NCBI GenBank assembly: GCA_007679095.1 | Contig: VEFU01000001.1 | Span: 1-64,000 of the forward strand | Direction: 5' to 3' | DNA from: Paenibacillus bovis | GTDB lineage: Bacteria > Bacillota > Bacilli > Bacillales > Bacillaceae_C | Length of the DNA: 64,000 nt | In this document: positions 30,060 to 58,731 of the stretch, in pieces | How the letters are laid out: each line of letters opens with the position of its first letter | Numbering within the stretch: position 1 is the first letter of the stretch | The notes under the pieces: model-generated | The model's input: only the letters and a program-made list of their open reading frames with translations | Told to the model about the DNA's origin: nothing | Database searches by the model: none | Translations under genes and position numbers: made by a program

Positions 30060-30840
30060 AGGTTTACTAGTGGTAGATAGTAGGTTACTAGGTGGTTACT
30101 GCACGTTAAAGTTAATTTACTGCCCATTTGAGCCTATTTACTAGCCATCTTTCTTCTTTTACTGGCCGTTCTCGGTGATTCACTAGCCATTCGGGTTTGT
30201 TTACTAGCCGTTAACTTTGATTCACTGGCCATTGGTGCCTGGTTACTGGCCATCTTTCTTCTTTTACTGGCCGTCCCTGCATGTTTACTGGCCATCGCAC
30301 TTCTTTTACTAGCCGTTCTCTTCAGATTACAAGCCGTCGCATCTTGGTTACTAGCCATCATCGGTGATTTTCTGGCCATCCGCACCTGTTTACTGGCCAT
30401 TGCACTTCTTTTACTAGCCGTCCTTCTTTTACTGGCCGTTCTCTTCAGATTACAAGCCGTCGCATCTTGGTTACTAGCCATCATCGGTGATTTTCTGGCC
30501 ATCCCTGCATGATTACTGGCCATCGCACTTCTTTTACTAGCCGTCCTTCTTTTACTGGCCGTTCTCTTCAGATTACAAGCCGTCGCATTATGTTTACTAG
30601 CCGTCATCGCTGATTTACTGGCCGTCCCTGCATGTTTACTGGCCATTGCACATCTTTTACTAGCCGTCCTTCTTTTACTGGCCGTTCTCTTCAGATTACA
30701 AGCCGTTGCATCATGTTTACTAGCCATCATCGTTGATTTACTGGCCATCCCTGCCTATTTACTGGCCATCGCACTTCTTTTACTAGCCATTACTCTCCAT
30801 TTACAAGCCATCTTTAATTTAATGTCCATTCACTTCTGTT
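30060..30840. repeat. Array of 21-bp tandem repeats (minisatellite-like)
   Basis: About 30-35 units share a core close to TTTACTRGCCRTY and carry 8-9 variable bases; most units are 21 bp and some 18 bp. Blocks of several units recur as a higher-order unit (for example CTTCAGATTACAAGCCGTCG recurs four times or so). Units at both edges decay. On the minus strand the array is readable as MASK/TASK heptads over 204 codons, and on the plus strand as LLAI/LLAV heptads. Stops interrupt both readings within the array and no good ribosome binding site is present, so I treat it as non-coding. It fills the gap between the ylbF-like terminator and the FNR box of the acetolactate synthase gene. Confidence 0.8.
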
Positions 30841-30997: not shown

Positions 30998-32656
30998 ATG
31001 TATGGAGCGCAATTACTTATTAATTTACTAGAGGAACATGGGGTCGACACTATATTTGGATATCCAGGAGGAGCAGTGTTACCAGTATATGATGCATTAT
31101 TTGATTGCCAAAGCATAAAGCATATTCTCGTTCGCCATGAACAAGCTGCTGTTCATGCTGCAGATGGGTATGCACGTGCAACCGGAAAACCTGGAATAGC
31201 TTTAGTTACAAGTGGACCAGGTGCCACGAATGCAGTGACAGGAATTGCTACTGCCCATGTTGATTCTGTTCCACTGATTGTGCTCACTGGACAAGTGCCT
31301 ACTAATTTACTTGGTCTAGACAGTTTTCAGGAAGTAGATATTTTTGCCATGACCATGACAGTTACGAAGCATAATTTCATGGTAACGGATATCCGAGATC
31401 TTCCCCGCGTGGTCCATCAGGCTTTTCAAATCGCTACAGCTGGTAGACCTGGGCCTGTATTAATCGACTTGCCCAAGGATGTGATGACAGACCATGTTAC
31501 GGAACACGATAAAAAAGACAAAGAAATTCGTTCTTTTATCGTCCCAAAAATAAAAGAAAAAGAGATACATATCATAGCTGAAAAAATAAATAATGCAGAG
31601 CGACCTGTACTAATTATCGGTGGAGGATGTATCACAGGAGATGGTCCAACTTTAGTGCATGAACTTGCCGCTCGTTGTGATATCCCTGTCACTTCAACTC
31701 TGATGGGACTTGATGCTTTTCCAACTGAACATCCACTACATTTGGGGATGCTTGGAATGCATGGTACCGTTGCAGCAAATCGTGCGGTCCATGGAGCTGA
31801 TGTCCTAATCTCCTTAGGAATGCGCTTTAGTGATAGAGTAACAGGAAATAAAAAGTCTTTTTCTCCTAATTCGCTTAAAATTCATATTGATATCGATAAT
31901 GCTGAGCTAAATAAAAATATTCGTGTGGATATACCAGTATGTAGTTCTGTGGAAGATGCTCTAACGCAAATACTAAAATATATAAAACCGAAGACACATA
32001 CTTCTTGGCATGGAAAAATAAACAATTGGGCGAAGCATGCACCTGCATTCAAGCCAGTACAAGATGAACGTTTAACTCCCCAAGAAGTTATTAGAGCAAT
32101 AGATAAAGCAACTGACGAGCAAACAATCATTTCAACCGATGTTGGACAGCACCAAATTTGGACAGCTCATCATTATCAGCTTCATACACCGCGAACATTT
32201 TTAACCTCAGGTGGGCTAGGAACGATGGGGTACGGTTTTCCAGCTGCAATTGGAGCAGCTGTTGCTTTTCCCGAACGACAAATTGTTTGTATTAGTGGTG
32301 ACGGTAGTTTCCAAATGAATATGCAAGAAATCATGACTGCTGTTGATTATGGTCTAAATGTAAAAGTAGTAATTTTGAAAAATGGTTATCTCGGTATGGT
32401 GCGCCAATGGCAACAATTATTTTTAAATCAAAGATATTCTGCAGTTCATATCTCCTCACCTGACTTTGCAGCAATGGCTACAACCTTTGGAGCAACAGGC
32501 TTTTCAGCACGAACATTAGATGAAGCGTATGCGATAATCCATGAAGGAATACAGACAAAAGGTCCTGTCATTATGGAATTTGAGGTAGTGGAAGAGGCAA
32601 ATGTATATCCAATTGTTCCTCCTGGCGCAAGCAACCAAGATATGATTGAGGAATGA
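30998..32656 (+). CDS. ilvB: Acetolactate synthase, large (catalytic) subunit
   Basis: The ATG at 30998 is preferred because GAGGAG lies 8 bases upstream; an ATG 9 bases earlier overlaps it. The 552-residue ThDP enzyme has F-G-Y-P-G-G-A-V-L-P-V, R-H-E-Q-A-A-V-H-A-A-D-G-Y-A-R, the FAD-region T-S-T-L-M-G-L, and the ThDP motif G-D-G-S-F-Q-M-N-M-Q-E. The end V-P-P-G-A-S-N-Q-D-M-I is IlvB-like rather than AlsS-like. There is no small regulatory subunit gene and no alsD beside it. The FNR box suggests use at low oxygen, perhaps in fermentative acetolactate or acetoin formation. Confidence 0.9.
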   Translation: MYGAQLLINLLEEHGVDTIFGYPGGAVLPVYDALFDCQSIKHILVRHEQAAVHAADGYARATGKPGIALVTSGPGATNAVTGIATAHVDSVPLIVLTGQVPTNLLGLDSFQEVDIFAMTMTVTKHNFMVTDIRDLPRVVHQAFQIATAGRPGPVLIDLPKDVMTDHVTEHDKKDKEIRSFIVPKIKEKEIHIIAEKINNAERPVLIIGGGCITGDGPTLVHELAARCDIPVTSTLMGLDAFPTEHPLHLGMLGMHGTVAANRAVHGADVLISLGMRFSDRVTGNKKSFSPNSLKIHIDIDNAELNKNIRVDIPVCSSVEDALTQILKYIKPKTHTSWHGKINNWAKHAPAFKPVQDERLTPQEVIRAIDKATDEQTIISTDVGQHQIWTAHHYQLHTPRTFLTSGGLGTMGYGFPAAIGAAVAFPERQIVCISGDGSFQMNMQEIMTAVDYGLNVKVVILKNGYLGMVRQWQQLFLNQRYSAVHISSPDFAAMATTFGATGFSARTLDEAYAIIHEGIQTKGPVIMEFEVVEEANVYPIVPPGASNQDMIEE

Positions 32657-32712
32657 AACAAGTGGAAAGTTACGATATAATGAAATTGCAAAGACGAAGG
32701 AGGGAAATCCAC

Positions 32713-33408
32713 TTGTCTAAAAAAACCGTAGCATCTTTACTACAACAAGTTCCTTTATTTAAGGATTTAAATACACAAGAAATAAAGCGTTTAGAGGAAA
32801 TTACAATTCCTCGTTTTCTCGTAAAAAAATCAACTGTCTTTTCAGAGGGTAGTGAAAAAGAGTCCGTCTATTTTATCCAAGATGGATTGATAAAAACATA
32901 TAAAACCGACGAGAATGGTCACGAACAAATTGTCTCTTTTTTAAAAACTGGTGATATGTTTCCACATACAGGTTTTTTCAATGAAAACCCTTATCCAGCT
33001 ACCGCTGAAACGCTAGTGGATACACAGCTTTTAGCAATTCCAATTCATTTATTTGATCAATTAATGGTGAATAATCCAACGATTGCAATCAAAGTAATGC
33101 GTGTGATGGGTAGAATTATTGGCGATCTTCAAGAGAGACTCCAAGTTTTATCAGGGAAAGATGTCAAACATCGCGCACTCTCCTTTTTACTAAAACTTGC
33201 GGAAAAGCATGGTCAGCATGGAGAGAACAAAGTTACCATCCATTTACCAATGACAAATCAAGAGTTTGCTAATTCTGTTGGTACAACACGAGAAACAATA
33301 AATCGCTTATTTAACCAATTGATTAAGAGCGGTATTTTAGAAATGGATCGAAATCAAATGGTAATAACCGACTTAGAAGCATTCCACGAAGTATTGGAAC
33401 AAAAATAA
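32713..33408 (+). CDS. Crp/Fnr-family regulator without Fe-S cysteines
   Basis: The start is TTG with GGAGGG upstream (LSKKTVASLLQQVPLFKDL); the frame extends to 32653 and overlaps the previous gene. The 231-residue protein has an N-terminal cyclic-nucleotide-type beta barrel (F-S-E-G-S-E-K-E-S-V-Y-F-I-Q-D-G) and a C-terminal HTH (TNQEFANSVGTTRETINRLF). It has no cysteine cluster, so it cannot be an Fe-S sensor like FNR; it is closer to ArcR/Flp-type proteins. It lies about 55 bases after ilvB, likely in the same FNR-driven transcript. It may recognise the same TGTGA boxes. Confidence 0.85.
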   Translation: MSKKTVASLLQQVPLFKDLNTQEIKRLEEITIPRFLVKKSTVFSEGSEKESVYFIQDGLIKTYKTDENGHEQIVSFLKTGDMFPHTGFFNENPYPATAETLVDTQLLAIPIHLFDQLMVNNPTIAIKVMRVMGRIIGDLQERLQVLSGKDVKHRALSFLLKLAEKHGQHGENKVTIHLPMTNQEFANSVGTTRETINRLFNQLIKSGILEMDRNQMVITDLEAFHEVLEQK

Positions 33409-33449: not shown

Positions 33450-33815
33450 TTATTCTACGATTAGTGTACCAACCATGTCATCATGTCCTATGCCACAGAA
33501 AATAGAACAAACATATTCAAATTCACCTGTTTTATTTGCAACGAAGGAGATTGTTTTGTCGCCTCTTACTTCTTTGTTGTATCCTTCAAACTTAACTGCA
33601 TGGTTACCTTCAGAGTTCTTTAATGTTACCTTAACTGTGTCACCTTTGTTAACTTTAATTTCTTTTAAATCAAACTCAAAGTTTGTTGCATCTATTGTAA
33701 ATTCTTTTACTTCACCGTTTCCAACAGCTTCTTCCTCATCATCGCCACCACACGCTGCCAATAGGAACATTGAAGCTACCACAAGCATTAGTGCTAACAT
33801 CCATTTTTTCATCAT
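33450..33815 (-). CDS. CuA-type cupredoxin lipoprotein
   Basis: The 121-residue protein has a lipoprotein signal (F-L-L-A-A-C-G-G, Cys about residue 22), an acidic linker and a cupredoxin domain. A complete CuA-like ligand set is visible: a His in G-N-H-A-V-K-F and C-x3-C-x3-H-x2-M in C-S-I-F-C-G-I-G-H-D-D-M. This is the subunit II CuA loop, but with no transmembrane hairpin and no oxidase domain. It could pass electrons, or carry copper to the Sco-assembled CuA sites nearby. It has its own FNR box. Confidence 0.85.
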   Translation of the reverse strand: MMKKWMLALMLVVASMFLLAACGGDDEEEAVGNGEVKEFTIDATNFEFDLKEIKVNKGDTVKVTLKNSEGNHAVKFEGYNKEVRGDKTISFVANKTGEFEYVCSIFCGIGHDDMVGTLIVE

Positions 33816-33871: not shown

Positions 33872-33887
33872 TGTGATATACATCACA
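33872..33887. promoter_or_regulatory. FNR-type box before the cupredoxin gene
   Basis: TGTGATATACATCACA is a perfect match, about 57 bases before the ATG on the minus strand. Confidence 0.85.
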
Positions 33888-33929: not shown

Positions 33930-34487
33930 TTATTCAATCTTTGATCCATCTTGAAACGCTAGAAAGATTAAATATAGCAGTAAACAAATTGCCATCGTCA
34001 GAAAACCCCAACCTAACGTTATTTGTTCAATTAATAAATAGTTATTACATAACTGCACAGGAGAATAAATGTACAACCATCCCATCCCTATGAACAAAAT
34101 TGTAAAGATAATAAAGATGACATTTTTCCCTTTTGTCGTTAGCTTTTTCCAACTATCTCGCAGCGGTACCCCTGCCAAAAATGGCAAACTTAAAAATTTA
34201 AAAACTTCAACACTTGTAGTTGTTAATGCCTCGTCCATCGTACGTGGAATCATCCAATACAACATAATAATCATGAATAGAAGAATACCTGGAATGCCGT
34301 TATGATTCCATTTTTCAAAAAAGCGTGGAAATCGATGTTGAACGTAACGGGCCATTAAGAAACCAGCAATGACGAGTAATGGCATTTGCATATGCATATG
34401 AATAATCATGATTGATTCCAACAAATTAGCTACAGGAGGAATGATTAAAAAAATATATAACAGCAAACCATACATAAACTGTCTCAT
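33930..34487 (-). CDS. His/Met-rich membrane protein, possible oxidase assembly factor
   Basis: The 185-residue protein has five or six membrane helices. It starts MRQFMYGLLLYIFLIIP and carries H-M-H-M-Q-M-P early and R-H/W-N-H residues between helices. The H-M-H-M-Q-M cluster is a likely copper ligand set. The arrangement recalls CtaG-like or caa3 assembly proteins but is shorter than the usual CtaG. It starts 4 bases after the stop of the Sco gene, so the two are coupled. A role in copper delivery to the adjacent heme-copper enzyme is inferred. Confidence 0.6.
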   Translation of the reverse strand: MRQFMYGLLLYIFLIIPPVANLLESIMIIHMHMQMPLLVIAGFLMARYVQHRFPRFFEKWNHNGIPGILLFMIIMLYWMIPRTMDEALTTTSVEVFKFLSLPFLAGVPLRDSWKKLTTKGKNVIFIIFTILFIGMGWLYIYSPVQLCNNYLLIEQITLGWGFLTMAICLLLYLIFLAFQDGSKIE

Positions 34488-34490
34488 TCA

Positions 34491-35120
34491 TCACCTCTGC
34501 CCTTCTTCTAGGATGCGAAGAATCTCTTTTGCAGCATCATCTGTTTTTGTATAATCTAGAACATCGACTAATCTCCCGCTCCTATCTACTAAATAAAACG
34601 CCGCATTATGTGCAAAATTCCCATAATCATCTGGAATGACAATGACACCAAATGTAGAGAGTAGTTGGTCTAATTGAGCTTGATCTGGTATTCTAGCCAT
34701 TCTCCATTTATCGCCATCACTACCAAAATAGTCTTTATACTTATCCAGAACTGTGGGGATATCTCTTTCCGGATCAAAACTAATACTTAAAAAATGGATG
34801 TCCTTCCCTAAATACGTATCTGGAATCTGTCGATAAACTTCCGCCATATTCATCTCCATATCAATACAAACGGTAGCACAGGAAGTGTAAATAAACGTTA
34901 TGAGCACATACTTATCGTTGAATTCCGAAAAACTATATGTTGCACCCTTACTATCCTCCAGTGTTACATCTGGAAATATCGGCTTCTTTTCCTTTAGTTG
35001 ATTTAATCTTGCCGTTTCAGCTGTAAAAGCCTGAAACCCATCCGTCCCAATAAAAAACAGACAAAACCCAAATAAAGAAACAACAATCACCGCAACAGCA
35101 TTCGCCCTAACCCTCAACAT
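34491..35120 (-). CDS. Sco1/SenC-family copper chaperone
   Basis: The ATG at 35120 (MLRVRANAVAVIVVSLF) has AAAGGAAG upstream; a longer frame runs back into a hairpin repeat and is unlikely. After an N-terminal membrane anchor comes a thioredoxin-like domain with the metal-binding C-x3-C in T-S-C-A-T-V-C-I-D and the conserved His in N-F-A-H-N-A-A-F-Y. Sco proteins build the CuA centre of subunit II. It lies downstream of a CuA enzyme operon and is coupled to a membrane assembly protein gene. Confidence 0.9.
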   Translation of the reverse strand: MLRVRANAVAVIVVSLFGFCLFFIGTDGFQAFTAETARLNQLKEKKPIFPDVTLEDSKGATYSFSEFNDKYVLITFIYTSCATVCIDMEMNMAEVYRQIPDTYLGKDIHFLSISFDPERDIPTVLDKYKDYFGSDGDKWRMARIPDQAQLDQLLSTFGVIVIPDDYGNFAHNAAFYLVDRSGRLVDVLDYTKTDDAAKEILRILEEGQR

Positions 35121-35141
35121 ATCCACACTTCCTTTGTGTCG

Positions 35142-35208
35142 GTGCCTGGCACCCAAACAACTCCGGTACAATTCAGAATTGTGTCCAAATTGTTTGGGTG
35201 CCAGGCAC
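35142..35208. repeat. Hairpin repeat with perfect 19-bp arms
   Basis: GTGCCTGGCACCCAAACAA and its exact complement are separated by 29 bases, and the loop contains a smaller dyad. The GGTGCCTGGCAC core is a dispersed palindrome seen in many Bacillaceae intergenic regions. It sits directly before the Sco ribosome binding site, so it lies in that leader if transcription comes from upstream. Confidence 0.75.
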
Positions 35209-35219
35209 TCTTTTGTCAC

Positions 35220-35570
35220 CGGACGCCTTCCGCTTTCTTTGTCTAGCTACAGCTCCTAGCGACTAGCAAATTTACGATTTCTTCCTACGATAAGTCAACA
35301 TCGTTCAAAGGTTTTCAAAGGTACGTCGACTAAGATCGGCACGTCCTGTGCCAACGTCGACGTGACCTCCATCCTGTAGGCCTCCTTTATCTCGTCAGAA
35401 ATCTTTAAATTTGTACGTCGCTGAGCAGTCGCTTCCGCTTTACCCTGTCCAGCTCCAGGCGCCATCGGCTCGAGGTCAAATAACCTGAGGCAATGAAAGG
35501 AAAAGAGCGCCTTTCTTTGCCTCAGAACATTTGCTTGTCGCCGATAAGCGGGCGCCTTCCGCTTTTCCCA
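35220..35570. repeat. Intergenic GC-rich repeat block (family C)
   Basis: This 350-base gene-free stretch begins ACGCCTTCCGCTTTCTTTGT and ends with a similar GCGCCTTCCGCTTTT. Between are TAGCTCCAG-like blocks, GATAAGTCAACATCG (also near 14170 and 56240), and GTCGACGT dyads. It separates the heme-copper oxidoreductase operon from sco. It is a mosaic dispersed repeat; no gene is seen. Confidence 0.6.
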
Positions 35571-37250
35571 TCACCACGTTTTGAACGGTGGGGAGCCTGG
35601 TGGTGCGTTGACGATGAAGTCGACCATTGGGATGACGTAGCCCATTGCGACGACGAGAAGCATGAGTATGATAGTACGGCTCCAGCGTTCTGTCCAGTAT
35701 GGTGTTTTTGGTGCGTTTTCTTCTTCTTCGGCAATTGGAAATTCTGCTTCTCCTTTTGGAGCAAAGAACATCAGATGTACAACCGCGTACACTTGAAGAA
35801 GGACACCGATGATTAATAACGTTCCACCAACTGCTAATAACAGTAAGTATGGATCCCAGCCTAATGCGGTAGCATGGTCACCATAAGTAGTATATGAAGT
35901 TCTTCGCGGAGCACCGAATAACCCGACATAGTGCATAGCACCAGCCATTAGAAACATCCCTGCCGTCCAAACAAACGTTTGAATAACACCTAGTTTATTT
36001 ATTTTCGGAGTCAACACTCGCTTAGAAACATATGGAACTAACCAATAACTAATCCCGAAGAATGTAAGCATAACCGACGTTCCAACAGTTAAATGGAAAT
36101 GCCCTACAACCCACAAAGTATTATGAACAACTTGGTTTAATTGGTTTGTACTTTGCACAATCCCACCAGCACCTGCAGGAATAAACGCGATCATTGCTAC
36201 CATTGGAGCCAAGAAACGGACATCTCCCCAAGGCAATTTCTTGATCCAACCAAGCAACCCTTTTCCACCTTTTTTTCTACCCGTACGTTCAAACACGGCA
36301 AACATTGCCCAAGCTGTCATTAACGATGGGAATCCGATTGCTAAACTCATAAACACGTGCACAAATTTTACAGATTCTGAAATACCCGGATCAATAATCT
36401 GATGATGGAATCCACCAGGTATATTCATAATTACTAATGCGATGACAACAAAACGTGTTAACGTATCGTTCCAACGTCTACCACCGATAATCTTCGGTAC
36501 AATGACATACCAAGCTGATACTGCGGTTAAGTACCAAATATTTACGAGCGTATGGCCAAATGCCCAGAACAGAGTACGTGCTACCATTACATTGATTGTT
36601 TCGACCCAACCGGCAGCCCAAGGAATAATCGTTAACACTTCAATGGCAACTGGTACACTTCCAAAGAATAATAGGATGAATACACCTGTTGCAAAGAATG
36701 CAAGAATTGGTAGGTGTTGACCACGGTGATTTTTACGCCAATTTGCTACGTTAATAAATGCACCAAATGCACACATCCACACCCCTAAAACAATAAACAC
36801 AAGACCAACATAATAAATCGGGGATGCAGCCATTGGTGGATAAAATGTGTATAACACACTTGCTTCATTCGTAATAATTGGAATGACTGCCAATACAAAT
36901 CCTACGAGTTTCATACTAAAGCCAATCCAAGCCATCTTTCTTACTTTCGGAAGCAAACCACCTAACGTATGAGAAAGACCCGCATAGAAATACCCGATCG
37001 TAAAGAATGCTGTTAAGACTAACACTAATAATAATCCGTGCGCCGTAAGTACTTGATAATAATTAAGCCATGTTGGTAATTCCAGAAGTCCTGCGCGGTT
37101 CAAACCTTGAAGAAGTCCTAAAATTCCCCCAACTAGCAGGGCTGCAAATGCTACAAATAAGTATGATTTCGATAATCTTGCGTCCTCTGAATTAATCCCC
37201 AATGCTTTATTCGCCTTCTGTGTAAAAGTTTGTTTCATTGCTGTTTCCAA
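35571..37250 (-). CDS. Heme-copper oxidoreductase subunit I, ba3-like but lacking the active-site Tyr (candidate NO reductase)
   Basis: The 559-residue B-family-like subunit I has about 13 helices. Heme ligands H71 and H386 and the heme a3-site ligand H384 (V-G-H-F-H) are present, with CuB-type His H233, H282 and H283 (F-H-H-Q). The position 4 residues after H233 is Asn237 (G-H-T-L-V-N-I-W-Y), where oxygen reductases have the His-linked Tyr (H-P-x-V-Y). The usual G-G-x-x-N-A-S-F helix is also changed (G-G-I-V-Q-S-T-N). Loss of this Tyr with an intact CuA subunit is expected of CuA nitric oxide reductases. The DNA codon is AAT. It is the last gene of a three-gene FNR-boxed operon. Confidence 0.85.
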   Translation of the reverse strand: METAMKQTFTQKANKALGINSEDARLSKSYLFVAFAALLVGGILGLLQGLNRAGLLELPTWLNYYQVLTAHGLLLVLVLTAFFTIGYFYAGLSHTLGGLLPKVRKMAWIGFSMKLVGFVLAVIPIITNEASVLYTFYPPMAASPIYYVGLVFIVLGVWMCAFGAFINVANWRKNHRGQHLPILAFFATGVFILLFFGSVPVAIEVLTIIPWAAGWVETINVMVARTLFWAFGHTLVNIWYLTAVSAWYVIVPKIIGGRRWNDTLTRFVVIALVIMNIPGGFHHQIIDPGISESVKFVHVFMSLAIGFPSLMTAWAMFAVFERTGRKKGGKGLLGWIKKLPWGDVRFLAPMVAMIAFIPAGAGGIVQSTNQLNQVVHNTLWVVGHFHLTVGTSVMLTFFGISYWLVPYVSKRVLTPKINKLGVIQTFVWTAGMFLMAGAMHYVGLFGAPRRTSYTTYGDHATALGWDPYLLLLAVGGTLLIIGVLLQVYAVVHLMFFAPKGEAEFPIAEEEENAPKTPYWTERWSRTIILMLLVVAMGYVIPMVDFIVNAPPGSPPFKTW

Positions 37251-37265
37251 CTTTACTCCCCTCCT

Positions 37266-37733
37266 TTATTTGACTGTTATCGTTGTACTCATCATTTGGT
37301 GACCAGCACCACAGTACTCATTACATAACACTAAATATTCACCTGGCTTATCAAACTTTTGCGTGATTTTCTGAATATACCCTGGCATCACCATTGCATT
37401 TACATTTGTTTCGGCTATTTGAAAGCCATGAACAACATCCTTTGACGTCAATGTAAAATGAACAGTAGAACCTGCAGGAACCTCGATATTCCCTGGATTA
37501 AAATTAAATACCTCTAATGTCATCACAACTTCGTATTCATTTTCACCAATTTGTGTAATGCCAGGATTATCAAATGGTGCCGTCTCATCCACTTTTTGTG
37601 GATCAATCGTTTCTTTATGACTCGGTGGTCCCATTCCTTCCACAAACGTTTGATAACCTGTTAATAACATGAACCCGATAATCATACCGAAGCTCAGGAT
37701 TAACCATATCTCTTCTGCACGATGCATCTTCAC
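37266..37733 (-). CDS. Heme-copper oxidoreductase subunit II with CuA site
   Basis: The 155-residue protein has a single N-terminal membrane helix (about 10-28, LILSFGMIIGFMLLTGYQTF region) and a cupredoxin domain. CuA ligands are complete: V-V-H-G-F and C-x3-C-x3-H-x2-M in L-C-N-E-Y-C-G-A-G-H-Q-M-M. The D-P-x-K-V-x-E-T-A-P-F-D-N-P-G segment is shared with the subunit II at 56609-57082, so the two operons are paralogous. It accepts electrons from a cytochrome c-type donor. Confidence 0.95.
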   Translation of the reverse strand: MKMHRAEEIWLILSFGMIIGFMLLTGYQTFVEGMGPPSHKETIDPQKVDETAPFDNPGITQIGENEYEVVMTLEVFNFNPGNIEVPAGSTVHFTLTSKDVVHGFQIAETNVNAMVMPGYIQKITQKFDKPGEYLVLCNEYCGAGHQMMSTTITVK

Positions 37734-37744
37734 TTAGATCCCCC

Positions 37745-37897
37745 CTATACTCTCGCCATATATAGGCCATAAATAATAAGATAAGTAATGAATATAACTG
37801 CCCCAACAACTCCTACGGAAAAAATCGTTCCCTTCACTGTAGTGGAGCTCTCATCTGCTTTAACATCCTTAACACGGTCAACTTTTGAATCTGCCAT
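37745..37897 (-). CDS. Small oxidase subunit IIa-like protein, 50 aa
   Basis: The ATG at 37897 (MADSKVDRVKDVKADE) has GGGAGG at workable distance; the longer frame starts at 37933. One transmembrane helix follows a charged head (G-T-I-F-S-V-G-V-V-G-A-V-I-F-I-T-Y-L-I-I-Y-G-L-Y). This matches cytochrome c oxidase subunit 2A, which completes the missing helix of subunit II in ba3-type enzymes. It is the first gene of the operon, 11 bases before subunit II. Confidence 0.8.
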   Translation of the reverse strand: MADSKVDRVKDVKADESSTTVKGTIFSVGVVGAVIFITYLIIYGLYMARV

Positions 37898-37958: not shown

Positions 37959-37974
37959 TGTGAGCCACGTCACA
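37959..37974. promoter_or_regulatory. FNR-type box before the first heme-copper operon
   Basis: TGTGAGCCACGTCACA is a perfect match, 62 bases before the subunit IIa start on the minus strand. Confidence 0.85.
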
Positions 37975-38034: not shown

Positions 38035-38943
38035 CTAGAATATTGGCAATGTCACAATAATCATCATTAAAAAGAGAACAAATAAATAGTTTACAGAGTA
38101 AATGAAATTCCAATCAGCCCATCTTCGTTCATCTTTCATAAAAAATCCATAAACGCCGAGAATTATCCACATAACTGTTAACAATGTCGCAATGACAACA
38201 AATACAACTCCTAATTCATTTAGAAGCAAGAACGGAATTGGCAGTAAGCAAAGTATATAAGCGAAAGTATGACGCTTAGCGACATCGATGCCACGGACCA
38301 CTGGTAGCATTGCTACTTTCGCCGCTTTGTATTCTTCAAATTTTCGTATCGCAATCACATACGTATGAGGCATTTGCCAAATAAATAATAGAATAAACAA
38401 CACAATTGGTACTAGCTGAAATGAAGATTCAATAGCTGCCCAACCAATCATTGGTGTTACTGCGCCGGAAACACTACCAATAATTGTATTGAACGTATAT
38501 CTCCGTTTCGACCAGATGGTATATGGTACAACATATGTGAACCAACCTATAAAGGCATAAATCGTTGCTTCCATTGTCGTGAATAATAACATAATAAATC
38601 CAATAATAGTTAACACGATAGATAACGTTAAAACGGTTTTTAATGAAATATTCCCAGTAACGGTTGGCCGACTTTTTGTCCTATCCATTACTGTATCAAT
38701 ATCGACGTCATACCAGTTATTAAAAACAAGTGCTCCTGCGATTACTAATAAACTTCCCACAGTTGTTAATAAAAATAAATTTATATTTTCTACGAGAGAT
38801 ACTTCATTAAAATATAGCGCTAACCAAAACCCCGTAATAACAGGGAAAACATTAAATATTAATACAGGACCTTTAAAAAGTAATTTCACATCTGAAAAAA
38901 TAGTAGATTTTTGTTGAGTCACGGATAAAGTAGTTTTCATCAC
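38035..38943 (-). CDS. ctaB: Protoheme IX farnesyltransferase (heme O synthase)
   Basis: The 302-residue UbiA-family protein has about nine helices. The prenyl-diphosphate binding motif N-N-W-Y-D-V-D-I-D followed by D-R-T-K-S-R-P is present, with a second acidic loop D-V-A-K-R-H. It makes heme O, the precursor of heme A used by a3-type enzymes. Its gene is upstream of a heme-copper operon on the same strand, with an FNR-like box in the divergent region before it. Confidence 0.9.
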   Translation of the reverse strand: MMKTTLSVTQQKSTIFSDVKLLFKGPVLIFNVFPVITGFWLALYFNEVSLVENINLFLLTTVGSLLVIAGALVFNNWYDVDIDTVMDRTKSRPTVTGNISLKTVLTLSIVLTIIGFIMLLFTTMEATIYAFIGWFTYVVPYTIWSKRRYTFNTIIGSVSGAVTPMIGWAAIESSFQLVPIVLFILLFIWQMPHTYVIAIRKFEEYKAAKVAMLPVVRGIDVAKRHTFAYILCLLPIPFLLLNELGVVFVVIATLLTVMWIILGVYGFFMKDERRWADWNFIYSVNYLFVLFLMMIIVTLPIF

Positions 38944-46472: not shown

Positions 46473-47012
46473 ATGGGATTATCTAAATGGAAAGTTGATG
46501 GCGCTCATAGTGAAGTAGGTTTCTCTGTAAAGCATATGATGGTTTCAAAAGTAAAAGGTACATTTGATCAATTTACTGCAGAAATAGAAGCAAATCCAAC
46601 TGATTTAACAACTGCAAGTATTCAATTTACAATTGATGTAGCAAGTATCAATACACGTAACAATGATCGAGACAACCACTTGCGTTCAGCAGATTTCTTT
46701 GATGTAGAGCAATACCCAAACCTCACATTTACGTCTTCTAAAATCGAAAAAACGGATGAAGATGAATATAAAGTAACTGGAGATGTTTCCCTACATGGAG
46801 TTACAAAGCAAGAAACATTCAATGTTACATTTGAAGGTTTAGCAAAAGACCCTATGAGTGGTGCAGAAAAAGCCGGATTCAGTGCAGAAGGTAAAATTAA
46901 ACGCAGCGATTACGGATTAACATGGAATGCAGCCCTAGAAACGGGCGGCGTATTAGTCGGAGATGACATTAAAATAACCATCGAAATTCAAGCAGAAAGA
47001 ATAGAAGGATAA
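46473..47012 (+). CDS. YceI-family protein
   Basis: The ATG at 46473 has GGAGG 9 bases upstream; a TTG earlier overlaps this site. The 179-residue protein has the lipocalin-like YceI pattern: W-K-V-D-G-A-H-S-E-V-G-F-S-V-K-H-M, F-D-Q-F-T-A, R-D-N-H-L-R-S-A-D-F-F-D and L-H-G-V-T-K. There is no signal peptide, so it acts in the cytoplasm. The family binds polyisoprenoids or quinone-like molecules. A terminator follows. Confidence 0.9.
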   Translation: MGLSKWKVDGAHSEVGFSVKHMMVSKVKGTFDQFTAEIEANPTDLTTASIQFTIDVASINTRNNDRDNHLRSADFFDVEQYPNLTFTSSKIEKTDEDEYKVTGDVSLHGVTKQETFNVTFEGLAKDPMSGAEKAGFSAEGKIKRSDYGLTWNAALETGGVLVGDDIKITIEIQAERIEG

Positions 47013-55310: not shown

Positions 55311-56006
55311 GTGAATAAACAAAACGATAACTCTTCCATGGTGTTTGCGAATCTCTCTACGATTGAAAAAATGGAGAAGGAAATGAACAAAGGTACATTC
55401 CTATTCCGCGAAGGGGATACTGCAGACGGAATTTATTTAATCCACTCCGGAAAAGTACGGATTGGAAAAATTACACCCGACGGACGAGAACTAACTTTCC
55501 GCATTTGCGGTGCTGGTGATTTCATTAGTGAAGTTATGCTTTTCTGTAATTTTTCTATTTATAATGTTCATGCAAAAGTGCTAGAAGATGGAGCTTATTC
55601 TAAAATAAAAAAAGAAGATTTAGAAGAAAAGTTGTTATTAAATCCTACCTTAAATATAGAAGTAATGAAGCAAATGAGCATTGACCAGCAAAAATCACAA
55701 TCTAAATTCCGTGACCTTATATTACACGGAAAAAAAGGTGCCCTTTACTCCACATTAATTCGAATGACAAACAGTTATGGTATCCAACAATCCGATGGAA
55801 TCCTAATTGATATTGCTTTCACAAATCAGGAATTAGCAAATTTTTGCGGGATGAGCCGTGAAGTAGTAAACCGGTTACTTAGTTCATTAAAGAAAGATGG
55901 AAAAATATCTATCATAGATGGGAAGATACTCATCCATGATCTCCAAGCATTAAAGGACGAAATCCACTGTGAAAACTGTCCAATTGAAATCTGTAATATA
56001 GAATAA
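55311..56006 (+). CDS. fnr: FNR, anaerobic transcriptional regulator with Fe-S cluster
   Basis: The start is GTG with GGTGGGAT upstream. The 231-residue protein has a Crp-type barrel (F-R-E-G-D-T-A-D-G-I-Y-L-I-H-S-G) and a HTH (TNQELANFCGMSREVVNRLL). The C-terminus has C220-x2-C223-x4-C228 (H-C-E-N-C-P-I-E-I-C), the cluster ligands of Bacillus FNR, which differ from the N-terminal cysteines of E. coli FNR. With oxygen the [4Fe-4S] cluster is lost and DNA binding stops. It likely acts on the TGTGA-N6-TCACA boxes found across this window. Confidence 0.93.
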   Translation: MNKQNDNSSMVFANLSTIEKMEKEMNKGTFLFREGDTADGIYLIHSGKVRIGKITPDGRELTFRICGAGDFISEVMLFCNFSIYNVHAKVLEDGAYSKIKKEDLEEKLLLNPTLNIEVMKQMSIDQQKSQSKFRDLILHGKKGALYSTLIRMTNSYGIQQSDGILIDIAFTNQELANFCGMSREVVNRLLSSLKKDGKISIIDGKILIHDLQALKDEIHCENCPIEICNIE

Positions 56007-56590: not shown

Positions 56591-56608
56591 CTGAAAGGAG
56601 TGACATTC

Positions 56609-57082
56609 ATGCACTTACACAAATTTGAAAAAATATGGCTAATTTTTGGCATCGTTGCTCTCGCATTATTTTTAGTAATTGTTGGGATAAATGCTTTTGC
56701 ACATGGTCATATGCCTGCAGGTGGAATGGACACAATTGATCCAGAAAAAGTACGAGAAACTGCACCTTTTGATAATCCAGGCGTTACACAAATTGATGAA
56801 GATACGTACGAAGTTGCTATTATAGCAATGGCGTTCGGATACAATCCAGCTCAAATTAAAGTCCCTGTGGGGAAAGAAATTATTTTTACATTAACAAGTG
56901 AGGATGTTGTTCACAGCTTTACCATTGATGACACAAAAGTGAACATGATGGCAGTTCCTGGAAGGATTACACATAAGAGCTATACGTTTACAGAACCAGG
57001 GAAATACTTAGTCCTCTGTAACGAGTATTGTGGAACAGGACACCATTACATGCAAACAGAAATTGAGGTGTATGAACCATGA
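56609..57082 (+). CDS. cbaB: ba3-type cytochrome c oxidase subunit II
   Basis: The ATG at 56609 has AGGAG 8 bases upstream; a GTG 9 bases earlier overlaps this site. One membrane helix is followed by a cupredoxin domain. CuA ligands are complete: V-V-H-S-F and L-C-N-E-Y-C-G-T-G-H-H-Y-M. It shares E-T-A-P-F-D-N-P-G with the paralogue at 37266-37733. The gene overlaps subunit I by 4 bases. Confidence 0.93.
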   Translation: MHLHKFEKIWLIFGIVALALFLVIVGINAFAHGHMPAGGMDTIDPEKVRETAPFDNPGVTQIDEDTYEVAIIAMAFGYNPAQIKVPVGKEIIFTLTSEDVVHSFTIDDTKVNMMAVPGRITHKSYTFTEPGKYLVLCNEYCGTGHHYMQTEIEVYEP

Positions 57083-58731
57083 TGGCAGTACAAGATCGCA
57101 GAATCGCTTTATCTAATATTGGAGTCGCATACATCGCTTTTATTATTGGAACGTTTTGCGGATTACTTCAAGTATTCATTCGAAATGATGCGCTCGAATT
57201 ACCAACTTGGCTCGATTATTATCAAATATTAACCGCTCACGGTGTTTTACTAGCACTTATATATACAACATTTTTTATCTTTGCATTCTTAATTAGCGGT
57301 ATGAGTAAAACATTAGGTAGCTTCGGTCCTAAAGTACGTACCTTTTTATGGCTAGGATTTATTGTAACTGCATTAGGTACAACGCTAGCAACCGCCATGA
57401 TTGTATCCGGTGAAGCTTCCGTTCTTTACACTTTTTATGCTCCACTTAAAGGAAGCGGATGGTTTTATGTTGGGCTTGCATTAGTGATTATCGGAACTTG
57501 GTTAAGTAGCTTTGGACTTATTGGACATTATATTGCTTGGCGCAAAAAGAATAAAGGGAAATTAAGTCCTTTGTTCGCCTTTATGACCATGTCTACCCTA
57601 ATTCTTTGGATTATAGCTTGTCTTGGTGTAGTTGCTGCCGTTGTTTTCCAATATATCCCTTGGGCATTTGGTTGGGTAGATACCATTAACGTTGAATTAA
57701 GTAGATCATTATTTTGGTTTTTTGGTCACCCTCTTGTGTATTTTTGGCTTTTACCAGCTTACATCGCATGGTATGTAGTAGTGCCTAAATTAGTTGGAAC
57801 AAAGGTATTTAGTGACTCATTGGCACGTTTTTCATTTATTCTATTCATCCTATTTTCCATCCCAGTAGGATTTCACCATCAATTAACGGAACCAGGAATT
57901 CCAGGATTTTGGAAATTCCTACAAGTAGTTCTAACATTTATGGTTATTATCCCATCATTAATGACTGCATTTTCAATGTTTGCTACTTTTGAAATCTCCG
58001 GGCGAAAAAAAGGTGGACGTGGATTATTCGGTTGGTTCACAAAACTACCTTGGAAAGATATTAGATTCACTTCTATTTTCATTGCGATGGCCTTCTTTAT
58101 CCCTGGTGGAGCTGGAGGAATTATTAATGCAAGTTTCCAATTAAATGAACTAGTCCACAATACTCTCTGGGTTGTAGGTCACTTCCATATTACTGTAGGT
58201 GCACCGGTTGCGATGACCTTTATGGGAGTTACGTATTGGCTCATCCCTCATTTAACTGATCGCGTATTTTCTAAGGCGATGAAAAAACTTGCCTTTGTTC
58301 AAACAATTTCATGGGCTGTCGGTATGATACTCATGTCTACCGCCCAACACGTATTAGGATTACTTGGAGCACCTAGAAGAACCGCATATACAGGATATAA
58401 CGATCATCCATCTGCACTGGAATGGTTTGACGGATTTTTCTCCAATCACGTAACAATGGCAGTTGGAGGTATCATTCTATTCCTATCTGCGATGCTGCTT
58501 GTCTATATCGTGATGAACTTGTTATTTTTTGCACCAAAAGCAAAACAGGAAAATGAATTTGAAGAATTCCCAATTGCAGAAAATGATGATTCTAGAACAC
58601 CAAAATTTTTGGAAAATTGGTGGATTTGGATTGGCATCACCATTGCACTTATCGTCATGGCTTACGCTATTCCAATCAGTGATTTGATTCAACATGCACC
58701 ACCGGGATCCCGTGGATATATTACTTGGTAG
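57079..58731 (+). CDS. cbaA: ba3-type cytochrome c oxidase subunit I (oxygen reductase)
   Basis: The 550-residue B-family subunit I keeps every oxygen-reductase active-site residue I can place: H54 (low-spin heme), H217 with the linked Tyr221 in G-H-P-L-V-Y-F-W-L-L-P-A-Y, CuB ligands H266-H267 (F-H-H-Q), and the G-H-F-H pair. The K-channel helix reads G-G-I-I-N-A-S-F-Q-L, like Thermus ba3. It should be a high-affinity terminal oxidase. It contrasts with the Tyr-lacking paralogue at 35571-37250. Confidence 0.95.
   Translation: MMAVQDRRIALSNIGVAYIAFIIGTFCGLLQVFIRNDALELPTWLDYYQILTAHGVLLALIYTTFFIFAFLISGMSKTLGSFGPKVRTFLWLGFIVTALGTTLATAMIVSGEASVLYTFYAPLKGSGWFYVGLALVIIGTWLSSFGLIGHYIAWRKKNKGKLSPLFAFMTMSTLILWIIACLGVVAAVVFQYIPWAFGWVDTINVELSRSLFWFFGHPLVYFWLLPAYIAWYVVVPKLVGTKVFSDSLARFSFILFILFSIPVGFHHQLTEPGIPGFWKFLQVVLTFMVIIPSLMTAFSMFATFEISGRKKGGRGLFGWFTKLPWKDIRFTSIFIAMAFFIPGGAGGIINASFQLNELVHNTLWVVGHFHITVGAPVAMTFMGVTYWLIPHLTDRVFSKAMKKLAFVQTISWAVGMILMSTAQHVLGLLGAPRRTAYTGYNDHPSALEWFDGFFSNHVTMAVGGIILFLSAMLLVYIVMNLLFFAPKAKQENEFEEFPIAENDDSRTPKFLENWWIWIGITIALIVMAYAIPISDLIQHAPPGSRGYITW

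What the first reader, a model, noticed from the sequence alone, without database searches (positions are those of the whole stretch)
35571..37897. CuA-containing ba3-like enzyme with Asn in place of the active-site Tyr: candidate nitric oxide reductase
Subunit I has H233-T-L-V-N237 where oxygen reductases of this family have H-P-x-V-Y; the codon is AAT. All heme and CuB histidines are kept (H71, H233, H282-H283, H384, H386), and subunit II has a full CuA site. Established: the His-linked Tyr is needed for O-O cleavage, and NO reductases of the heme-copper superfamily, including CuA-type enzymes of Bacillus, lack it. The paralogue at 57079-58731 keeps H217-P-L-V-Y221. The neighbours (NnrS-like, DUF2249, Sco, heme O synthase, FNR boxes) fit NO handling. 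Inference: this operon encodes an NO reductase that automatic annotation would call a cytochrome oxidase.
Basis: partly seen in the sequence, partly recalled or inferred. Interest (0 to 1): 0.85.

Follow-up and report, generated by a model that had tools for sequence, protein, structure and literature searches.

The report
Bacillus-type CuA nitric oxide reductase (bNOR)
These genes look like a ba3 oxygen-respiration enzyme but very probably encode a further member of a published family of Bacillus enzymes that turn nitric oxide into nitrous oxide, so the find is sound but not new.

Summary
Subunit I (35571-37250, minus strand) has all six heme/CuB histidines and Asn237 at the site of the His-linked Tyr237 of Thermus ba3. 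Heylen and Keltjens 2012 (PMC3475470, passages read) assigned an operon with the same Tyr-to-Asn change to the purified B. azotoformans CuA NO reductase, now called bNOR. Our locus has the same genes: small peptide, CuA subunit, subunit I, SenC, a membrane protein, plus ctaB as in B. bataviensis. A fetched relative, L135, carries both published N-terminal peptides letter for letter (20 of 20, 30 of 30) and lies with our protein, B. bataviensis and the other Asn rows of the tree in one clade (100/100); the window's Tyr paralogue is outside. Asn is in 129 of 129 distinct rows at 60% identity or more; below that, 10 of 11 have Tyr and one Asn. The genome has two narG and no hit over cut-off for NirK, NirS, NrfA, NirB, NosZ or the qNOR N-domain. 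NO reduction by this protein is inferred, not measured.

The parts
35571..37250 (-). cbaA / bNOR subunit I, catalytic, 559 aa, TTG start (an ATG four codons further in); Asn237 in place of Tyr237
36537..36554 (-). codons of H233-T-L-V-N237-I238 (helix VI motif)
   Evidence: position by arithmetic, checked against the sequence; motif
37266..37733 (-). cbaB / subunit II with full CuA site; 15 of 20 residues equal the published N-terminus of the purified B. azotoformans small subunit (the ba3 paralogue's subunit II: 8 of 20)
37745..37897 (-). cbaC, 50-aa peptide, by place and size the counterpart of the small peptide of the B. azotoformans enzyme (8 of 30 residues equal, weak on its own)
34491..35219 (-). 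senC / Sco copper-insertion protein; the listed GTG start lies in a palindromic repeat, a likelier start is the ATG at 35120
33930..34487 (-). cbaD, protein of the bNOR operon, counterpart of BABA_00215 (no Pfam or NCBIfam match)
38035..38943 (-). ctaB, heme o synthase, upstream as in B. bataviensis
37959..37974 (.). perfect TGTGA-N6-TCACA box upstream of cbaC-cbaB-cbaA
39063..39078 (.). FNR/CRP-type box with one mismatch upstream of ctaB
33450..33815 (-). stand-alone CuA-type cupredoxin lipoprotein (C-x3-C-x3-H-x2-M); possible accessory or donor, function inferred
33872..33887 (.). perfect FNR/CRP-type box upstream of the cupredoxin gene
32653..33408 (+). Crp/Fnr-family regulator without cysteine; a 64-67% identical regulator lies in the same stretch in L045 and L062

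Best explanation
The operon encodes a bNOR (formerly CuANOR or qCuANOR), the Bacillus-type nitric oxide reductase derived from the B family (ba3) of heme-copper oxidases. Electrons probably enter from a membrane cytochrome c551-like lipoprotein at CuA, pass through the low-spin heme to the heme/CuB site, and reduce two NO to N2O. Asn replaces the cross-linked Tyr that oxygen reductases use to split O2. Shown here: active-site residues, CuA site, operon, clade membership. Inferred: the reaction, the electron donor, and proton uptake from the cytoplasm through a remodelled K channel. The genome has two narG and no detected NirK, NirS, NrfA, NirB or NosZ over cut-off, so its likely role is to clear NO that arises during nitrate respiration or comes from neighbours, ending at N2O.
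For: Asn237 in 129 of 129 distinct rows with at least 60% identity; of 11 rows below it, 10 have Tyr and one Asn. Six His invariant in the 129 Asn and 10 Tyr rows. L135 holds both published N-terminal peptides of the purified B. azotoformans enzyme, and its subunit I is 69.7% identical to ours. L037 is B. bataviensis contig02, where the match falls on the published coordinate of cbaA1. Tree of 64 of 142 rows: the 52 Asn rows are one clade, 100/100, with L135 and L037 inside and the Tyr paralogue P0002 outside. Operon partners in 111 loci: cbaB 111, senC 105, cbaD 105, cbaC 90, ctaB 48. The B. azotoformans enzyme is described as an electrogenic, B-type-like NOR in PMC5826923 (passages).
Against: No activity measured on this protein. 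In the paper the purified enzyme was tied to its genes by N-terminal sequence, and the peptide reported for the large subunit turned out to match the small peptide, not subunit I. Key family papers were not read: Murali 2024 is not held; Al-Attar and de Vries 2015 and Suharti 2001/2004 were not asked for. K-channel Tyr244 is lost (V 100, I 13, T 11 of 129 among others), so proton uptake must differ in detail. The boxes upstream also precede ba3 oxidases (8 of 9). No other NOR family was in the tree, and only 10 Tyr-type rows plus Thermus served as outgroup.
Confidence: 0.93

Rival explanations
1. It is an oxygen reductase that works without the usual Tyr, or with a displaced Tyr such as Y240 one helix turn below N237.
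For: Y240 is in 128 of 129 Asn rows and in 0 of 10 Tyr-type rows; NORs can have some O2 activity (recalled).
Against: The clade contains the gene assigned to the purified B. azotoformans NO reductase. The genome keeps a ba3-type subunit I with the Tyr (P0002) and another 623-aa COX1 protein for O2. The divergent Asn row L145 has Met at 240, so Y240 is not universal among Asn rows.
Confidence: 0.04
2. It is a degenerate, inactive ba3 paralogue.
For: A catalytic residue of the oxidase is lost.
Against: All six His are invariant over 129 rows, the operon is kept widely and the frame is intact.
Confidence: 0.01
3. It belongs to another NOR family of the B group (sNOR, nNOR, eNOR, gNOR) rather than bNOR.
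For: Heylen and Keltjens use sNOR as a second label for the same operon type and mention relatives in nitrifiers; the naming is unsettled.
Against: It nests within the clade of the B. azotoformans enzyme that Bell et al. call bNOR. No eNOR, gNOR, nNOR or nitrifier sNOR sequence was put in the tree, so this rests on nearness to that enzyme (about 70% identity).
Confidence: 0.02

Closest known systems
CuANOR / qCuANOR type I = bNOR of Bacillus azotoformans (BAZO_06394-06409)
   Same: Tyr to Asn, CuA subunit, small peptide, SenC, cbaD, gene order; subunit I 69.7% identical by L135
   Different: ctaB next to the operon here; a stand-alone CuA-type lipoprotein and a cysteine-free Crp/Fnr regulator lie beside it here and were not matched in the 13.7-kb stretch of L135
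bNOR operon of Neobacillus (Bacillus) bataviensis LMG 21833, BABA_00215-00235
   Same: Same genes including ctaB, subunit I 81% identical
   Different: No stand-alone cupredoxin or Crp/Fnr regulator matched in the fetched 17.7-kb locus
Thermus thermophilus ba3 oxidase
   Same: Family, six His, K-channel positions Y133, Y248, S309, T312
   Different: Y237 is N, Y244 is V, L240 is Y, T315 is A
Window paralogue 56600-58731 (ba3-type oxidase)
   Same: Subunit I 48% identical; CuA subunit II next to subunit I
   Different: keeps H-P-L-V-Y; outside the Asn clade

Membership tests
bNOR (CuANOR) | Six heme/CuB histidines of the heme-copper superfamily | tested here: met
bNOR (CuANOR) | Asn in place of the His-cross-linked Tyr | tested here: met
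bNOR (CuANOR) | CuA-bearing subunit II encoded next to subunit I | tested here: met
   in relatives 108 of 111 by my pattern, and the 3 misses, printed, show H-G-M with the CuA ligands present
bNOR (CuANOR) | Operon with small peptide, SenC and cbaD | tested here: met
   the peptide by place and size more than by sequence (8 of 30)
bNOR (CuANOR) | Same clade as the characterised B. azotoformans enzyme | tested here: met
bNOR (CuANOR) | NO to N2O activity, cytochrome c551 as donor, electrogenic | not testable with these tools
   a cytochrome c551-like gene is in the genome, 101.4 bits against a cut-off of 118
ba3-type oxygen reductase | Cross-linked Tyr on helix VI | tested here: not met
qNOR / cNOR (C-family related) | No CuA subunit; cytochrome c-like part fused to or beside NorB | tested here: not met
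   CuA subunit present; no PF22085 hit in the genome
sNOR, eNOR, gNOR, nNOR | Own clades near the B family | not tested
   no reference sequences of these were in the tree

The most novel reading that the evidence does not exclude
In bNOR the proton-delivering tyrosine has moved three residues down helix VI: Y237 and K-channel Y244 are lost while Y240 is gained and nearly fixed. In this lineage and some others the enzyme also draws electrons from a dedicated stand-alone CuA lipoprotein encoded beside the operon, here under its own FNR-type box, in place of or beside cytochrome c551.
Probability: 0.15. Interest if true: 0.5.

Novelty: new member of a known kind. Interest (0 to 1): 0.2.

Why it matters
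Genomes like this one look like non-denitrifiers with several cytochrome oxidases, yet one of these is very probably an N2O-producing NO reductase. That affects predictions of N2O release from soil bacilli. The point has been made in print (PMC11388526); this locus is one more case, and it is the only heme-copper NOR that the two searches for them detected in the genome. The gained Y240 and the adjacent stand-alone CuA lipoprotein give two small testable questions.

Tried and rejected
Rejected: an oxygen reductase with a Tyr from another helix. In the 129 Asn rows against 10 Tyr rows, the Tyr gains (at least 90% of Asn rows, at most 20% of Tyr rows) are at 30, 87 and 240 only; by the topology I recall for ba3 none of these is on helix VII, and Y240 is on helix VI. 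Rejected: FNR boxes as evidence for NO handling, since 8 of 9 ba3 loci have them too. Not supported: NnrS label of two membrane proteins. Led nowhere: a search for papers on stand-alone CuA lipoproteins gave 0 papers for five phrasings, which says little; brought no further paper on the Asn. Mended on the way: the numbering of Thermus ba3 was off by six (the chain used carries an extra stretch at its start) and was corrected; one search counted the paralogue twice on the oxidase side (11 rows), once (10 rows). In one search most cupredoxin matches at 24-32% are cross-matches to cbaB; one search removed matches lying on cbaB and left 11 of 111. The regulator's lack of cysteine is not kept in the matched regulators: L045 and L110 show none, most others 1 to 5 (counted stop to stop, so upstream residues may be included).

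Full report
What is there. On the minus strand the window holds, in order, ctaB (38035-38943), a 50-aa peptide cbaC (37745-37897), subunit II cbaB (37266-37733), subunit I cbaA (35571-37250), senC (34491-35219) and cbaD (33930-34487). Subunit I carries H71, H233, H282, H283, H384 and H386 and the motif H233-T-L-V-N237; the paralogue at 57079-58731 carries H217-P-L-V-Y221. Alignment with Thermus ba3 places N237 on the cross-linked Y237.

The organism. The genome G382 is of the same genus, and its contig with the match is 61854 bases long, as is the contig of L036, Lederbergia panacisoli. I infer that the window comes from a Lederbergia species.

How general the Asn is. Homologues came by two routes: 80 named loci from genome contigs (the tool kept the best 80 of 140) and places from 397 genomes of the order (281 of 397 had a match at E 0.001; I had 30 loci returned with the call and took 40 more by place, of which 9 are from the roughly 50% group). 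Of 154 loci then held, 152 gave an open frame aligned over more than 400 residues (L001, a 623-aa COX1 protein, and L004 did not), and 140 were distinct. At column 237 the 129 distinct rows with at least 60% identity have Asn (one is the window's own, 80 are from named loci); of the 11 below 60%, 10 have Tyr and one (L145, 56%) has Asn. The Tyr side is a small sample of that group. Nearby, bNOR rows replace P234 by T (127 of 129), F238 by I (128), L240 by Y (128) and Y244 by V, I or T (124); Y248, S309 and T312 of the K channel are kept in all 129, and Y133 in 106 with Phe in 23.

Placement. A tree of 64 of 142 rows puts its 52 Asn rows, L145 included, on one side of a branch with support 100/100; P0001 is sister to B. 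niameyensis (L045), next to Lederbergia panacisoli (L036) and strain FJAT-49711 (L035). P0002 falls among the Tyr rows. The Thermus row is very long, and treekit warned that the long rows P0002 and L153 join; neither place is used here. I take L135 to be B. azotoformans or a near copy. L037 is B. bataviensis LMG 21833 contig02, and its match starts at contig position 46749, the coordinate that the paper's table gives for cbaA1.

The published account. Heylen and Keltjens 2012 (PMC3475470; passages read) identified this operon type as the CuA NO reductase of B. azotoformans, noted Tyr to Asn, and described the small peptide, SenC, a protein with six predicted helices, and ctaB beside the B. bataviensis copy. 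Bell et al. 2024 (PMC11388526; abstract and passages read) call it bNOR, report it in 123 of 433 Bacillota genomes with NOR or Nos, and note that KEGG labels it coxA. PMC5826923 (passages) says the B. azotoformans enzyme is B-type-like and was reported electrogenic. Murali et al. 2024 was asked for and is not held. One detail has moved since 2012: the paper says that ctaB adjoins the B. bataviensis copy unlike all its other relatives, whereas a ctaB match lies in 48 of 111 fetched bNOR loci, upstream of cbaA in 38 and downstream in 10.

Operon and regulation. Of 111 loci (L035-L145), cbaB is matched in 111, senC in 105, cbaD in 105, cbaC in 90 (short and easily missed), ctaB in 48 (several loci are cut by contig ends or by a 6-kb flank, so these are lower bounds). 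TGTGA-N6-TCACA boxes with at most one mismatch occur within 600 bases upstream of the cbaB match in 79 of 111 loci: 83 boxes in 66 kb against 60 in 1459 kb elsewhere in the same loci, 68 of the 83 lying 221-260 bases upstream; perfect boxes are in 21 of 111. B. bataviensis (L037) has none. Of 9 ba3 loci, 8 have a box. In the window 9 boxes stand against 2.4 expected. So the operon is most likely under a Crp/Fnr-family regulator, but that is shared with the oxidases.

The genome. Two narG over cut-off. Not over cut-off: NirK (one match, 24.6 bits against 296.3), NosZ (three matches, all to CuA domains of this window), NirB (seven matches, best 153 bits against 578). No match: NirS, NrfA, the NorB cytochrome-c-like part. 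The COX1 search found the 623-aa COX1 protein, the two ba3-type genes and one short frame of 147 aa. The assembly is in 522 contigs, so absence is not proof. A cytochrome c551-like lipoprotein scores 101.4 bits under a cut-off of 118. The likely role is thus clearing NO during nitrate respiration, with N2O as end product; this is inference.

What is left that is not in the passages I read. First, Y240: in 128 of 129 Asn rows and 0 of 10 Tyr rows, three residues after N237, while K-channel Y244 is lost. Second, a stand-alone lipoprotein with a CuA-type loop (33450-33815) lies directly after cbaD; 11 of 111 other bNOR loci have a separate cupredoxin with C-x3-C-x3-H-x2-M somewhere in the fetched stretch, three of them not downstream of cbaA (L091, L141, L142). 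Third, the regulator at 32653-33408 has no cysteine; a regulator 64-67% identical lies near the operon in L045 and L062, and 16 more of the 111 loci have weaker matches, 25-40%, not all cysteine-free. None of these was tested functionally; five phrasings in a paper search found nothing on stand-alone CuA lipoproteins, a weak negative.

Verdict. A sound observation and a sound reading of a known enzyme family. Interest is low because the family, the residue change and the operon are published.

Noticed in passing
33450-33815 (-): Stand-alone CuA-type cupredoxin lipoprotein right after the bNOR operon, with a perfect FNR-type box at 33872-33887; 11 of 111 other bNOR loci have a separate cupredoxin with the same loop.
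   Followed up: partly
32653-33408 (+) and 55311-56006 (+): Two Crp/Fnr-family regulators, one near each ba3-type operon: the one by bNOR has no cysteine, the one by the oxidase has six, three of them at its C-terminus (220, 223, 228).
   Followed up: partly
   Followed up: partly
30096-30812: Tandem array (units of 42, 105 and 123 bases) with an open frame of MASK/TASK-like repeats on the minus strand, between a YlbF-like gene and a TPP-enzyme (acetolactate-synthase-like) gene.
   Followed up: no
35140-35570: Palindromic repeat (GTGCCTGGCAC and its reverse complement at 35142 and 35198) and two AAAGCGGAAGGCG copies (minus strand, 35224 and 35553) in the gap between cbaA and senC; the listed GTG start of senC lies in the repeat.
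   Followed up: no
   Followed up: partly
L004 (own genome C232:1-1943): 147-aa open frame that matches only part of COX1 (profile positions 319-399, 26.4 bits, under cut-off); a short membrane protein of unknown role.
   Followed up: no
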